From Myxococcus landrumus (lineage in GTDB: Bacteria; Myxococcota; Myxococcia; Myxococcales; Myxococcaceae): a stretch of DNA of 64,000 nucleotides. The notes beneath the pieces are model-generated. The model searched no databases, was not told the origin of the DNA, and saw nothing but the letters and a program-made list of their open reading frames with translations. The stretch spans positions 2,058,001 to 2,122,000 of the forward strand of contig NZ_CP071091.1 of the NCBI RefSeq assembly GCF_017301635.1. Reading direction: 5' to 3'. Below are positions 46,804-51,144 of the stretch, in pieces (position 1 is the stretch's first letter; the number at the start of each line of letters is the position of its first letter). A program made the translations under genes and the position numbers.

Positions 46804-47424
46804 TCAGCGAGCCGGAGGGCTTCCGTGCGAGGACGCGCCGCCCTTCAACTCGTAGGACACCAGCTCCAGGCGAGTCTGGGGGATGCGCTGCTGGTTGGCG
46901 GTCTCCACGGCCGTCTCCAGACGGACCATGCCCACGCCCGGGGCGAACGTCATCGTGTTGATGAGCGTGGCCTTGGCATCGACCCGGTTGCGCCCTTCCA
47001 CCTCGATGCACGACGGGAAGGTGCCCGCGGGGGTGTCGCAAGAGCCGCCCGCCTGGACAATCTGGTAGCGCTCCGTGGAGGACACCGACACCACGTTCGT
47101 CCACGCCTGGCCGGTGCGCAGGGGGGCTCGGAGCAGGTAGCGCTTGGGGTCCCTCAAACCGTAGGCATCCACGGAGAACTGGCCGCCCTGATTGTCGTGA
47201 AAGTAACCCTCTTCCTGCTTGAGGATCTCCACGGTGAAGGAGCGGTCGGCCCGTCCGTTGAGCCGGTACGTCCACTTGTTGCCGACGGCGAGCGGGTAGT
47301 AATCCGCCACGTCTCCGGTGGCGGACCGAGCCTCGGGCTCCGCCTCCACGCGCCTGGCGCAGCCGCTTCCCAGCACCATGGCGGCCAGCAGGACCGCGCC
47401 ACCCACTCCGAACGAACGCGTCAT
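46804..47424 (-). CDS. Lipoprotein of unknown function
   Basis: 206 aa from the ATG at 47424. Signal peptide with 'LGSGC' (Cys22), a slightly non-standard lipobox. The mature protein is a beta-rich domain with 'YYPLAVGNKWTYRLNG' near its start and two cysteines ('GGSCDTP', 'FPSCIEVEGRN') likely forming a disulphide. The opening motif is common in uncharacterised surface lipoproteins of myxobacteria. It starts 7 bp after the HEAT-repeat lipoprotein stop, forming a two-gene operon. Confidence 0.82.
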   Translation of the reverse strand: MTRSFGVGGAVLLAAMVLGSGCARRVEAEPEARSATGDVADYYPLAVGNKWTYRLNGRADRSFTVEILKQEEGYFHDNQGGQFSVDAYGLRDPKRYLLRAPLRTGQAWTNVVSVSSTERYQIVQAGGSCDTPAGTFPSCIEVEGRNRVDAKATLINTMTFAPGVGMVRLETAVETANQQRIPQTRLELVSYELKGGASSHGSPPAR

Positions 47425-47431
47425 CTCGATG

Positions 47432-48346
47432 TCAGTCCGCGTGGTCCCGGCCACGCGCCTCCGCGGTGATGTGCTTGCGTGAAGCGTAGAGCGTCTCCAG
47501 GGCCTGCTGCGCCGCGGCCTGCACGGCTGGCGCGTCATGCCCCTGGGCCACGGTATACAAGTATGCCTCCGCCTCGGGGCCACCAATCTCGCCCACGGCG
47601 AAGACCAGCTCCTGCACGAAGCCATTGTCCCGGCCTCGCGCCAGGTCGATGAGCGCCGGCACGGCGACGCGGGCCTTCATCTCGACAAGGGCGCCGATCG
47701 TCTTGCGCAGGGCGTCTCCATCGGAGGACTCCTTCAGACGCTCGATGAGCAGCGGGGCCGCAGCGGGGTGCTGACGTTCGGCCAGGGTGCGCAAGGCGAA
47801 TTCACGGATGCGCGCATCGTCCGCGTGGAGTTCCTGGACCAGGGCCTCATCGGTGCGCTCCAGGGCGGCGAGCTGGAGCACCGAGGAGTCCGTCACCTGA
47901 CGGAGCACGGCCTCCAGCGCGGTGCGCATGGCGGACTGTCGTCCCTCTGGAGTGTCCTCCAGGACGGGGGCTTCGCCGAGGCCGACGACTTCGTAGCGCT
48001 GTGGCAGGTCTCCGCCGAAGCGCTCCAGGACGAGGTTGGCGCCGACCTCCGCGAAGCTGCGTGGGTCTCCGTCCTTCAGCACCTCGCGGGTGAACGGAAT
48101 CTCCAGCGTGAGGCGCCAGGGGCGCACGTCGCGCGGGGTGTCCTCGCCTTTCAGCTCGAAGCGGCCGGAAGACTTCAGCGCGTGGGAGAACAGTGTCGCG
48201 ACGCCCTCCGGGGCAATCCCCAGCAGGGCGTTGTCTCGGACCGTGGCACCGGACACATCCACGGGCGCCACGACATGGCGTGGCGCCTGCGAGCGGCAGG
48301 CACCAAGGAGGACGACGCAGAAGGCGAGCATCAGGGCCGGCTTCAT
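47432..48346 (-). CDS. HEAT-repeat lipoprotein
   Basis: 304 aa. Signal peptide with a good lipobox ('LLGAC', Cys17). Residues ~25-150 are a beta-rich domain. Residues ~155-295 carry HEAT/PBS-lyase-like helical repeats ('DARIREFALRTLAERQHPAAAPLLIERL', 'ALVEMKARVAVPALIDLA', 'QELVFAVGEIGGPEAEAYL' in order). Probably an outer-membrane-anchored scaffold facing the periplasm. It follows a 640 bp gap with a tandem repeat. Confidence 0.85.
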   Translation of the reverse strand: MKPALMLAFCVVLLGACRSQAPRHVVAPVDVSGATVRDNALLGIAPEGVATLFSHALKSSGRFELKGEDTPRDVRPWRLTLEIPFTREVLKDGDPRSFAEVGANLVLERFGGDLPQRYEVVGLGEAPVLEDTPEGRQSAMRTALEAVLRQVTDSSVLQLAALERTDEALVQELHADDARIREFALRTLAERQHPAAAPLLIERLKESSDGDALRKTIGALVEMKARVAVPALIDLARGRDNGFVQELVFAVGEIGGPEAEAYLYTVAQGHDAPAVQAAAQQALETLYASRKHITAEARGRDHAD

Positions 48347-48987
48347 CGCCCGCTCAGGGTAACACCCGAATCGGACCTGTGCCGGTCATTCCCGCCCGCC
48401 GGGGACGAAGGGTGTTACCTCGGGCCCACTTCTGGGGCCCCTGACGGGGAGCACGGTCCCTCGCACCTCGTGCGACCTGGCGCATCTTGCAGAGAGCACG
48501 CTTGTGTGCGGAGGGAGTCGTGGACGGAGGTGGCCGTACGGACGAGGCCGCTCACGGTTGATGCGAGCCGCGACATCCCCCGCGCCCCTCAACGCGTAGG
48601 CGCATGTCCCAACCCTCTGAAGAGTGACTGGGATGCAGCAGCGAAGTGGACGCAACCTCTCGCGCCTCGTGCGAGTCACACCGTCCACTCCCAACGACCG
48701 TCCCTGTCCCCGAAGGGGGGCGGACGCGAAGGCCATGGAGTGGGCGCAGCCTTTACCACCGCGTGCGAGTCACACCATCCATTCCCCACGACCGTCTCTG
48801 CCTCGAAGGGAGACCTGGACGCGAAGGCAATGGAGTGGACGCGGACTCAACCACCGCGTGCGAGTCACACCGTCCACTCCCAACAACCGTCCCTGTCCTC
48901 GAAGCGTGACCTGGACGAGGAAGCCACGGAGTGGACGCGGCCTTGCGACCGCGCCCACTCATCATGGCTATCGACGACGCGGAAGCG
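48347..48987. other. 640 bp intergenic region with tandem repeats
   Basis: No credible gene: readings through it change frame between repeat copies and lack ribosome sites. The first ~300 bp are unique sequence; the last ~320 bp hold the ~95 bp repeat array. It separates two minus-strand genes, so it should hold the promoter of the HEAT lipoprotein operon. Confidence 0.7.
48645..48967. repeat. ~95 bp degenerate tandem repeat, 3 copies plus a partial
   Basis: Each copy starts AGTGG(A/G)CGC (48645, 48739, 48834, 48930), giving periods of 94, 95 and 96 bp. Inside each is the core CGTGCGAGTCACACC, then TCCA(C/T)TCCC, ACGACCGTC or ACAACCGTC, and CTCGAAG. The fourth copy stops after ~38 bp. The periods are not multiples of three, so the array is not a coding repeat. 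No spacer/repeat alternation, so not CRISPR. Confidence 0.85.
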
Positions 48988-51144
48988 TCAGCCCTCGCTC
49001 CCCTCAGCGGGCAACTTGGGCGGAGTGGACGCCTCCGAATGTGGCTCGGAGGACTCACCCTCCGGACCCGCCGCCTTCGTGACGGCCTCACCCTGAGGAG
49101 CCTGTTCCACTCCAGCGGCCTCCGTCGCACCTTCAGTCACCGGCACCGCGGCGGCCACACTCTCGGCCGGCTGCGCCGCGACTTCCGGCTGCGCCGCCTC
49201 GGACGCGGACTCCGTCGAAGCCACAGCGCCAGACTCGACACCCGTCGAGATCTCAGCGCCCGACTCCGTACCCTGCGCCTCACCACCCGAAGATGCGGCG
49301 CCTTCCGTCTGCGCGGCGCCAGCCTCGGGAGCCGTCACGGCACCCTCGGCCCCTGCACCCGCCGCGGCGGCATCACCCTGCGGCGCACCCGCCGGCGTGG
49401 CGCCAGCCTCCGCGCCCCGGTTGCCACGCCCCCGGCGCCCACGACGACGACGACGACGACGCTTGCGATCACCCTGCGCGGCATCGGCACCACCCTCGGC
49501 GGCGGCGCCCTCCGGACGAGCACCCACGAAGGCGCTCGCGGCCTCCAGGTCGTCGTCCTCGCCCTCGTCATCCCCGTCGTCGCCCTCTTCGTCCTCCGCC
49601 CCCGTGGACTGCGGTGCCTGCACGGGCGCGGCGGGAATCACCTCGCGGGGCTCAACCGCGGCCCCACCCTCGCGAGCCTCCGCACCCTCCACGGAGACCT
49701 CGACCTCGTCGCCCGAGCGAGCCTCACGCCGCTCCCGCTCACGACGACGCTTCTCGCGCGGACGCTCCGTCGGAGCAGCAGCGACCTCGCCACCCTCCTC
49801 CTCGCGCGTCTGCTTCTCGCGCTGACGCTCCTCGCGACGCTTCTGGGCCTCCTCGGCGTCCAGCTTCGCGGCCTCGAAGAAGCGCTCGTCCACCTCGTAC
49901 AGCTCGACGCGCGTGACGGTGACGGCCGTCTCGGCCTCCAGGAACTTCTCACCCAGCGCGTCCCCGCACCACAGCATCACCAGCGAGCCGCTGGCCTGCG
50001 CCTCGGTGCGCGCGTCCCCGCGCACATCGCCCGCGGTCACCAGCAAGCCCACCTGCGCCGAGTAGTGGCTCAGGTCGCGACGCAGCTCCTGCACGCTCTT
50101 GCGGTCGATGGCCGGAGTGCCCTTGAGCATCCGCACCGCGTAGCGCAGCTCCACGCTGCCCTCGCGCTTGCGCGCCGTGAGCAAAGGACCTTCCTTGGAG
50201 CGCTTGGCCACCTTCAGCTCGCGGAAGCCCAACGCGTGCATCATCTTCACCACGGACTTCTCGAACGTTCCCACGTCCGCGTCGCCCAGGCGCTTGCGCA
50301 GCCCCCGAGCCACCGCGCGGCGCGCGTCCTTGAGCGACGTGCGCAGCGTGGTCAGCAGCGCGGCATCCACCACCGGCTCGCTCGCCACCGCGGCGGCTCC
50401 CGTCCGAGCCAACACCGGACGTCCCGCCTCCAGCGGAATCCCCAGCGCCTGCGCGAACGCGGCCTGCAGCTCCAGCGACGGAGCCTCGCTCGGCGAACCC
50501 GCGCGCTCCAGCGTCACCTCACCAGAGTCCTTGTTGAACGCGTACTGCGGCCGGCGGCCCGCGTCGATGCGGCGCTGGTTGTCCTCCAGGAGCGCCGTGA
50601 GCACCGCCTCCACCGTGAGGTCCTCGGCGCACAGCTCCTTGCTCCGAGCCCGCTCGATGATGGCCTCGGTGCGCAGCCCGGCGTCGGCATCGCTGAGGAT
50701 TTCGAACACCACCTCTGGCAGCGGCGGGAAACGCTTGCGCTTTCCACCCCGCTCCTCGTCTTCGTCCCTCCGGCGTTTGCGCTCACTGCCGCGACCTGCC
50801 GCCCGCACGTTGTCCGTGCGTGGCTCCGGATGACGCTCCGCCGGCCTCAAGGGCGGCAGGTCCTCTTCCGGATTCGGCTCGATTACGCCAGTCTGTGCCA
50901 GGGCCTCTACATCCTCGGGAATCGACCAATCCACCAACGCGAAGGTGTCCTTCGCGGTCACAATCACCTTGCGGTCCCTCGTGCGGCGCGCCATGGCGGC
51001 CAAGCGCGAGAGCATCGTCACTTCGGGCGTCTTGCCGACGTGGGAGAGCAGGCTCTGTTGGATGGACTTCTCTGTGATTTCAAGGAAGTGGAGGGGACGA
51101 CCTTCGCTCTCCAGGACTCGGAGCGCGGCCTCGTAGAATGTCAT
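48988..51144 (-). CDS. HARE-HTH protein with Mrr-like domain and RNase E-like basic tail
   Basis: 718 aa. Residues 1-75 match the HARE-HTH winged helix ('FYEAALRVLESEGRPLHFLEITEKS', 'LLSHVGKTPEVTML' in order). Residues ~250-410 resemble a restriction-endonuclease (Mrr-like) fold: 'FEKSVVKMMHALGFRELKVAKRS', 'LRRDLSHYSAQVGLLVTAGDV'; the usual D-(D/E)-x-K is not clear. The last ~290 residues are low-complexity, first Glu/Arg coiled coil, then acidic, then an Arg tract ('RKRRRRRRRGRRGRG') and an Ala/Glu tail, like RNase E scaffolds. It may link nucleic acid binding to RNA; inference. Encoded alone on the strand, 98 bp from a divergent gene. Confidence 0.8.
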   Translation of the reverse strand: MTFYEAALRVLESEGRPLHFLEITEKSIQQSLLSHVGKTPEVTMLSRLAAMARRTRDRKVIVTAKDTFALVDWSIPEDVEALAQTGVIEPNPEEDLPPLRPAERHPEPRTDNVRAAGRGSERKRRRDEDEERGGKRKRFPPLPEVVFEILSDADAGLRTEAIIERARSKELCAEDLTVEAVLTALLEDNQRRIDAGRRPQYAFNKDSGEVTLERAGSPSEAPSLELQAAFAQALGIPLEAGRPVLARTGAAAVASEPVVDAALLTTLRTSLKDARRAVARGLRKRLGDADVGTFEKSVVKMMHALGFRELKVAKRSKEGPLLTARKREGSVELRYAVRMLKGTPAIDRKSVQELRRDLSHYSAQVGLLVTAGDVRGDARTEAQASGSLVMLWCGDALGEKFLEAETAVTVTRVELYEVDERFFEAAKLDAEEAQKRREERQREKQTREEEGGEVAAAPTERPREKRRRERERREARSGDEVEVSVEGAEAREGGAAVEPREVIPAAPVQAPQSTGAEDEEGDDGDDEGEDDDLEAASAFVGARPEGAAAEGGADAAQGDRKRRRRRRRGRRGRGNRGAEAGATPAGAPQGDAAAAGAGAEGAVTAPEAGAAQTEGAASSGGEAQGTESGAEISTGVESGAVASTESASEAAQPEVAAQPAESVAAAVPVTEGATEAAGVEQAPQGEAVTKAAGPEGESSEPHSEASTPPKLPAEGSEG

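What the first reader, a model, noticed from the sequence alone, without database searches (positions are those of the whole stretch)
48645..48967. Non-coding ~95 bp tandem repeat ahead of a lipoprotein operon
Three diverged copies with periods 94, 95 and 96 bp keep a 15 bp core (CGTGCGAGTCACACC) but not a reading frame. Conservation of the core against drift elsewhere suggests a bound protein, a structured RNA or a recombination-prone element.
Basis: seen in the sequence. Interest (0 to 1): 0.5.

Follow-up and report, generated by a model that had tools for sequence, protein, structure and literature searches.

The report
Tandem-copied hairpin behind a nuclease-like gene
A stretch of repeated DNA between two bacterial genes is several worn copies of a strong hairpin that probably helps end transcription of the gene before it; it is a local, rather ordinary feature found in a few related Myxococcus species.

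Summary
The array is real: 3.1 copies of a 95-bp unit at 48645-48943, with a shortened copy to 48960. It fills part of a 641-bp spacer between a HARE-HTH/Mrr nuclease-like gene and a HEAT-repeat lipoprotein gene, both on the minus strand. On that strand each unit starts with an inverted repeat of about 47 nt. The first, 27 nt after the stop, has the second-strongest fold of 140 sampled 3' ends and is identical in three sister species except in its loop. The spacer is 66-67 bp in 21 of 27 genus genomes; four related species have the array, with differing copies. It is not dispersed. The 15-bp core is not significantly more conserved than the copies overall (P 0.085). Best reading: a U-less terminator-like hairpin, gained in one Myxococcus lineage and multiplied by tandem duplication, upstream of a promoter-like block kept in 27 of 27 genomes. 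Termination is inferred; covariation is absent and the sense-strand bias of such hairpins is only suggestive. In passing I found a different tandem array, a covarying RNA in 95 of 96 family genomes, which looks more interesting.

The parts
48645..48943 (-). tandem array, period about 95 bp, 3.1 copies
   Evidence: TRF, the repeat finder
48929..48960 (-). hairpin h1, 27 nt after the nuclease-gene stop; 15 nt shorter than in three sister species but keeping the 13-bp outer stem; MFE -28.3 sense, -18.7 antisense
48833..48879 (-). hairpin copy h2 (sense -25.9, z -3.5)
48738..48784 (-). hairpin copy h3, decayed (z +0.7)
48644..48690 (-). hairpin copy h4 (sense -21.6, antisense -23.6)
48461..48475 (.). 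palindrome TCGCACGAGGTGCGA, like the hairpin tip, identical in four species
48414..48987 (.). approximate extent of the segment (about 574 bp) absent from relatives with a 66-67-bp spacer; TGAC at the left edge and a TGACAC-like sequence at the right edge
   Evidence: alignment of spacers; edges are approximate
48355..48388 (-). promoter-like two-box block TGACCGGC...GGTGTTACCCTG of the lipoprotein gene
   Evidence: matched in 27 of 27 genus genomes with a lenient pattern, offset 22-23 nt as matched, 7-8 nt before ATG; promoter role inferred
48988..51144 (-). gene before the array on the minus strand: HARE-HTH plus Mrr-type nuclease domain protein, 718 aa
   Evidence: Pfam PF05066, PF04471
47432..48346 (-). 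gene after the array: HEAT-repeat lipoprotein, 304 aa; followed by a second lipoprotein-like ORF without Pfam match, birA-like and coaX-like genes
   Evidence: Pfam, ORFs; lipoprotein signal judged by eye

Best explanation
The array is a 3'-flank hairpin of the HARE-HTH/Mrr gene that was multiplied by tandem duplication. A roughly 0.57-kb segment, absent from most relatives, sits directly after the stop codon in one small Myxococcus lineage. Its first element is a strong GC-rich hairpin, more stable in the mRNA sense than in the antisense. Most likely it ends transcription or protects the 3' end of the nuclease-gene mRNA without a U-tract, separating that gene from the promoter-like block of the lipoprotein-birA-coaX operon. 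The extra copies arose by tandem duplication and are decaying; they may add weak back-up termination. Shown: the array, the hairpin geometry, conservation of the first hairpin, lineage restriction. Inferred: termination, insulation, and that duplication arose by slippage.
For: First hairpin: 0 of 42 stem and internal-loop columns vary in three sister species and 3 of 5 loop columns do, while 68 of 304 third codon positions of the next gene vary (Fisher P 1e-4 against third positions, 6e-4 against the loop); 0 of 26 outer-stem columns vary in four species. Energies are about -36 kcal/mol sense against -28 to -29 antisense in relatives, and -28.3 against -18.7 in the window; the strand difference is matched by 27 of 500 shuffles for G072 and 0 of 500 for the window copy. 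In 864 kb of this genome (40 sampled stretches plus the window), 39 of 140 ends of genes followed by a same-direction gene fold at -28 or below in sense, 25 in antisense, 6 when shuffled; at convergent ends it is 13, 13 and 5 of 90, at divergent starts 7, 3 and 3 of 100. This end is second of the 140, itself included. Five T in seven bases occur in 27 of 230 ends. The promoter-like block downstream is in 27 of 27 genomes. Of 8 distinct long spacers, 7 have a fold with z -2.2 or lower in the first 120 nt after the stop, with unrelated sequence outside the array clade. PMC8355165 reports hairpin clusters near stop codons as terminators with poly-U not required (abstract, section 13 and passages seen).
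Against: No compensatory covariation in the seven full-length copies used: 1 pair with both sides changed, shuffled mean 0.9. Copy h3 has lost its fold and h4 is more stable in antisense. No canonical terminator or sigma-70 match in 47000-50000. 21 of 27 genus genomes have only a 66-67-bp spacer. The genome-wide sense bias at same-direction ends (64 stronger in sense, 31 in antisense) is only suggestive against shuffled sequences (48 and 38; P 0.07). Some short spacers also reach z -2.3 to -2.7, so they overlap the long ones. In G063 the antisense fold is the stronger. The conservation test was made after seeing the alignment. No transcript data were available.
Confidence: 0.46

Rival explanations
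1. Neutral slippage product: a palindromic insertion that expands and decays by replication slippage and has no role; the first hairpin's conservation is luck or template-switch correction.
For: No covariation; decayed h3; window and G069 copies are most alike within their own species (84% and 91%); absent in 23 of 27 genus genomes; weak genome-wide strand bias once shuffles are compared.
Against: First-hairpin stem invariant while its loop and neighbouring third positions drift; strong hairpins are in excess at 3' ends in this genome (39 against 6 shuffled of 140).
Confidence: 0.31
2. Operator array: the 15-bp palindrome TCGCA-N5-TGCGA is a binding site for a dimeric regulator of the lipoprotein operon, repeated in the spacer.
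For: The palindrome at 48461-48475 is identical in four species within drifting flanks; 4 sites in the G072 spacer, 3 in G071, 2 in G069. Genome-wide counts exceed the reversed control: 10 against 3 here, 8 against 3, 7 against 2 and 11 against 4 in G069, G071 and G072.
Against: About 10 sites are what I expect from base composition alone (own estimate from 67.6% G+C); CTCGCA-N3-7-TGCGAG gives 9 against 8; only one exact site in the window's spacer. Whether the other sites lie upstream of genes was not examined.
Confidence: 0.1
3. REP/BIME-like or MITE-like mobile palindrome that landed here.
For: Palindromic, about 47 bp, within a segment with TGAC at the left edge and a TGACAC-like sequence at the right edge.
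Against: No dispersed copies seen: BLAST, covariance model (150 candidates scored per genome), patterns; no terminal inverted repeats noticed by eye.
Confidence: 0.05
4. Small RNA made from the array on either strand.
For: Stable folds on both strands.
Against: No promoter match (a low-power scan), no Rfam family above gathering score, fast sequence turnover, no covariation.
Confidence: 0.05

Closest known systems
U-less ('I-shaped') intrinsic terminators and terminator hairpin clusters
   Same: GC-rich hairpin within 80 nt of the stop, no U-tract, several hairpins in one spacer (PMC12288462 passages; PMC8355165 abstract, section 13 and passages)
   Different: Here the hairpins are tandem copies of one unit at about 95-bp spacing, farther apart than the under-15-base clusters of that study; termination not measured
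REP/BIME palindromes
   Same: extragenic palindromic units in tandem with flanking DNA (PMC3733652 passages)
   Different: seen at one locus only, not dispersed
Canonical Rho-independent terminator
   Same: GC-rich stem-loop after a stop codon
   Different: no U-tract

Membership tests
U-less intrinsic terminator / hairpin cluster | stable hairpin close to the stop codon (98% of correctly identified sites at 80 bases or less, abstract of PMC8355165) | tested here: met
   first hairpin starts 27 nt after the stop; MFE -28.3, z -6.7
U-less intrinsic terminator / hairpin cluster | neighbouring hairpins under 15 bases apart (cluster) | tested here: not met
   h1 and h2 are 49 nt apart (coordinates); a linker hairpin could shorten the gap but was not tested alone
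U-less intrinsic terminator / hairpin cluster | transcripts end at the hairpin | not testable with these tools
   no RNA data
Canonical Rho-independent terminator | hairpin followed by a U-tract | tested here: not met
   0 sites in 47000-50000
REP/BIME palindrome | many similar copies dispersed between genes of one genome | tested here: not met
   4 matches below E 0.1, all in this spacer; BLAST finds only itself below E 0.04
Conserved structured RNA gene | compensatory base changes | tested here: inconclusive
   1 pair, no excess over shuffles, but only seven copies
DNA-binding operator array | site over-represented upstream of other genes | tested here: inconclusive
   10 sites in the genome against 3 for the reversed control and about 10 by own estimate; CTCGCA-N3-7-TGCGAG 9 against 8; positions relative to genes not examined

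The most novel reading that the evidence does not exclude
The array is a tunable insulator: slippage changes the number and quality of hairpins between the nuclease-like gene and the lipoprotein-birA-coaX operon, so read-through into that operon differs between lineages and can change quickly in evolution.
Probability: 0.08. Interest if true: 0.5.

Novelty: new member of a known kind. Interest (0 to 1): 0.27.

Why it matters
It gives a case in which the gain of a 3'-end hairpin in a short spacer can be placed among known species: four related species with it, two other genus genomes with unrelated hairpins, 21 without. It also gives a small measure of how common strong, mostly U-less hairpins are at 3' ends of genes in this genome.

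Tried and rejected
Dispersed mobile palindrome: searched by pattern, BLAST and covariance model. Matches outside the locus were weak; in eight relatives only the same spacer of G069, G071 and G072 gave E below 0.001 with the model, and BLAST gave one match elsewhere at E 4e-5 (G072, L023) and four genomes at E 0.002-0.007. I inspected nine loci: L018 is the same spacer of G071; the other eight lie in or across open frames of 120 codons or more, a weak criterion at this G+C; L107 does fold into a similar hairpin. Phage origin: no match in the phage collection. Rfam: two sub-threshold hits. A first covariance model from an alignment with a misplaced row gave 5 pairs and was not used. For the pair count I kept 7 of the 11 rows, dropping shortened or misaligned copies (Wh1, G069h2, G069h3, G071h3); three further poor copies (G071h2, G072h3, G069h4) were never aligned. 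Literature searches on tandem or palindromic intergenic elements and terminators in Myxococcus listed nothing on this locus; I saw listings (3 of 3, 15 of 57, 15 of 260 and 12 of 253), apart from the passages cited. RepRanger paper PMC12306157: one passage seen, no Myxococcus mention found. Other non-coding TRF arrays in the 864-kb sample: L121 and L133 look like protein-repeat regions, L136 and L149 were not resolved, L127 is under Noticed in passing.

Full report
TRF finds 3.1 copies of a 95-bp unit at 48645-48943 with 81% matches; ungapped comparison gives spacings of 94, 95 and 95, 96. The 15-bp core is exact three times in the window and nowhere else exact in the 10.37-Mb single-contig genome. 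The core itself is not a strong signal: in the three aligned copies 68 of 97 columns are invariant, and a run of 15 arises in 8.5% of column shuffles.

Setting. Both neighbours are on the minus strand. Before the array is a 718-aa protein with HARE-HTH and Mrr nuclease domains; after it a HEAT-repeat lipoprotein, a second lipoprotein-like frame without Pfam match, then birA-like and coaX-like genes. The array therefore lies in the 641-bp stretch between a stop codon and the next start. The named records whose lipoprotein is closest are Myxococcus.

Comparison. I extracted the same spacer from 27 genus genomes and 20 named loci (seven of these are titled Myxococcus or Pyxidicoccus, and several have the same spacer sequence as genus genomes). 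It is 66-67 bp in 21 of 27, 191 and 230 bp in two (unrelated sequence), and 424-751 bp in four: the window genome, G069, G071, G072. Among the other named loci nine Corallococcus have 54-55 bp, Hyalangium 47, Citreicoccus 270, and two draft genomes 17 and 287, where the upstream end was set only by the longest open frame. The four array genomes top the lipoprotein identity list (97-100% against 91% or less), so a gain in their common ancestor is the simplest history; I built no tree. At the edges, TGAC follows the coding end on the left, and a TGACAC-like sequence matching the start of short spacers lies on the right.

Anatomy. On the minus strand a full unit opens with an inverted repeat of about 47 nt: in the sister species' first copy a 13-bp outer stem, a 2x2 internal loop, a 6-bp inner stem and a 5-nt loop. 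The first hairpin in three sister species differs only in the loop: 0 of 42 stem and internal-loop columns vary, 3 of 5 loop columns vary, and 68 of 304 third codon positions of the next gene vary. In the window it is 15 nt shorter but keeps the outer stem. Later copies are most alike within the window (84%) and within G069 (91%), and about 72-82% alike in the matches between the window, G069 and G072. Window copy h3 no longer folds better than shuffled sequence. The seven full-length copies show no covariation beyond shuffles, so selection on RNA pairing is not proven by that test.

Background. In 864 kb (40 stretches of 20 kb plus the window; 558 genes called by a simple GC3 rule) I compared the best 50-nt fold in the 80 nt after stop codons. 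For 140 ends followed by a same-direction gene, 39 reach -28 kcal/mol in sense, 25 in antisense and 6 when shuffled. Convergent ends give 13, 13 and 5 of 90, divergent starts 7, 3 and 3 of 100. The window end ranks second of the 140, itself included. Sense is stronger by more than 2 kcal/mol in 64 and antisense in 31 of the 140, but shuffled sequences give 48 and 38, so this bias is only suggestive (P 0.07). Only 27 of 230 ends have five T in seven bases. This places the first hairpin among the strongest of a general class of mostly U-less 3'-end hairpins. In 7 of 8 distinct long spacers a fold with z of -2.2 or lower lies in the first 120 nt after the stop; short spacers range from -2.7 to +1.6, so the two groups overlap.

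Not a dispersed element. BLAST with the array finds only itself below E 0.04 in the own genome. A covariance model finds four matches below E 0.1, all in this spacer. In eight relatives E below 0.001 occurs only in the same spacer of G069, G071 and G072 (the tool scores 150 candidates per genome).

After the array, a two-box block (TGNYCGGC, offset 22-23 nt, GGTGTTANCCTG, 7-8 nt, ATG) is matched in 27 of 27 genomes whatever the spacer length (the first box with a lenient pattern). I read it as the lipoprotein promoter; that is inference. The array lies wholly upstream of it.

Mechanism. The best-supported reading is a 3'-end hairpin acting as a U-less terminator or mRNA end, multiplied by tandem duplication. 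Published work describes such terminators and hairpin clusters (PMC8355165: abstract, section 13, passages; PMC12288462: passages). The reference list seen also names a paper whose title says that mycobacterial polymerase requires a U-tract, so U-less termination is disputed. Termination here is inferred, not shown.

By the way. In the same sample a second non-coding array (L127, genome position about 4.1003 Mb) turned out to be a conserved, covarying RNA present in 95 of 96 family genomes; it is described under Noticed in passing.

Noticed in passing
L127:293-505 minus strand (G000:C1:4100293-4100505): Structured RNA of 71-nt units, each two hairpins with a U-rich tail (last copy TTTCTTTTT; the simple terminator scan flags none), 3 tandem copies here, 2-4 in the genus and mostly 1 elsewhere. 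9 of 22 pairs changed on both sides, 0 of 500 shuffles as high (rows are related). Matches in 27 of 27 genus genomes, 95 of 96 family genomes and 101 of 195 phylum genomes, six of these in two other families of the order. No Rfam family reaches its gathering score (ncS035 19.5 bits against 79). Looks like a tandem small-RNA gene; one paper search on Myxococcus sRNAs (12 of 30 listed) showed Pxr work and papers on other organisms.
   Followed up: partly
window 48461-48475: 15-bp palindrome TCGCACGAGGTGCGA identical in four species although its flanks drift; possible operator of the lipoprotein operon.
   Followed up: partly
window 48355-48388 minus strand: Two-box promoter-like block kept with nearly fixed spacing in 27 of 27 genus genomes.
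   Followed up: partly
L038, spacer before 3001 (Citreicoccus inhibens): The same spacer in another genus holds four copies of a 21-bp repeat (GAGCAGGAGCCTGTCGGCAGC) and unrelated hairpins.
   Followed up: no
L136:402-509: Another non-coding two-copy 52-bp tandem repeat in the sampled genome, not resolved.
   Followed up: no
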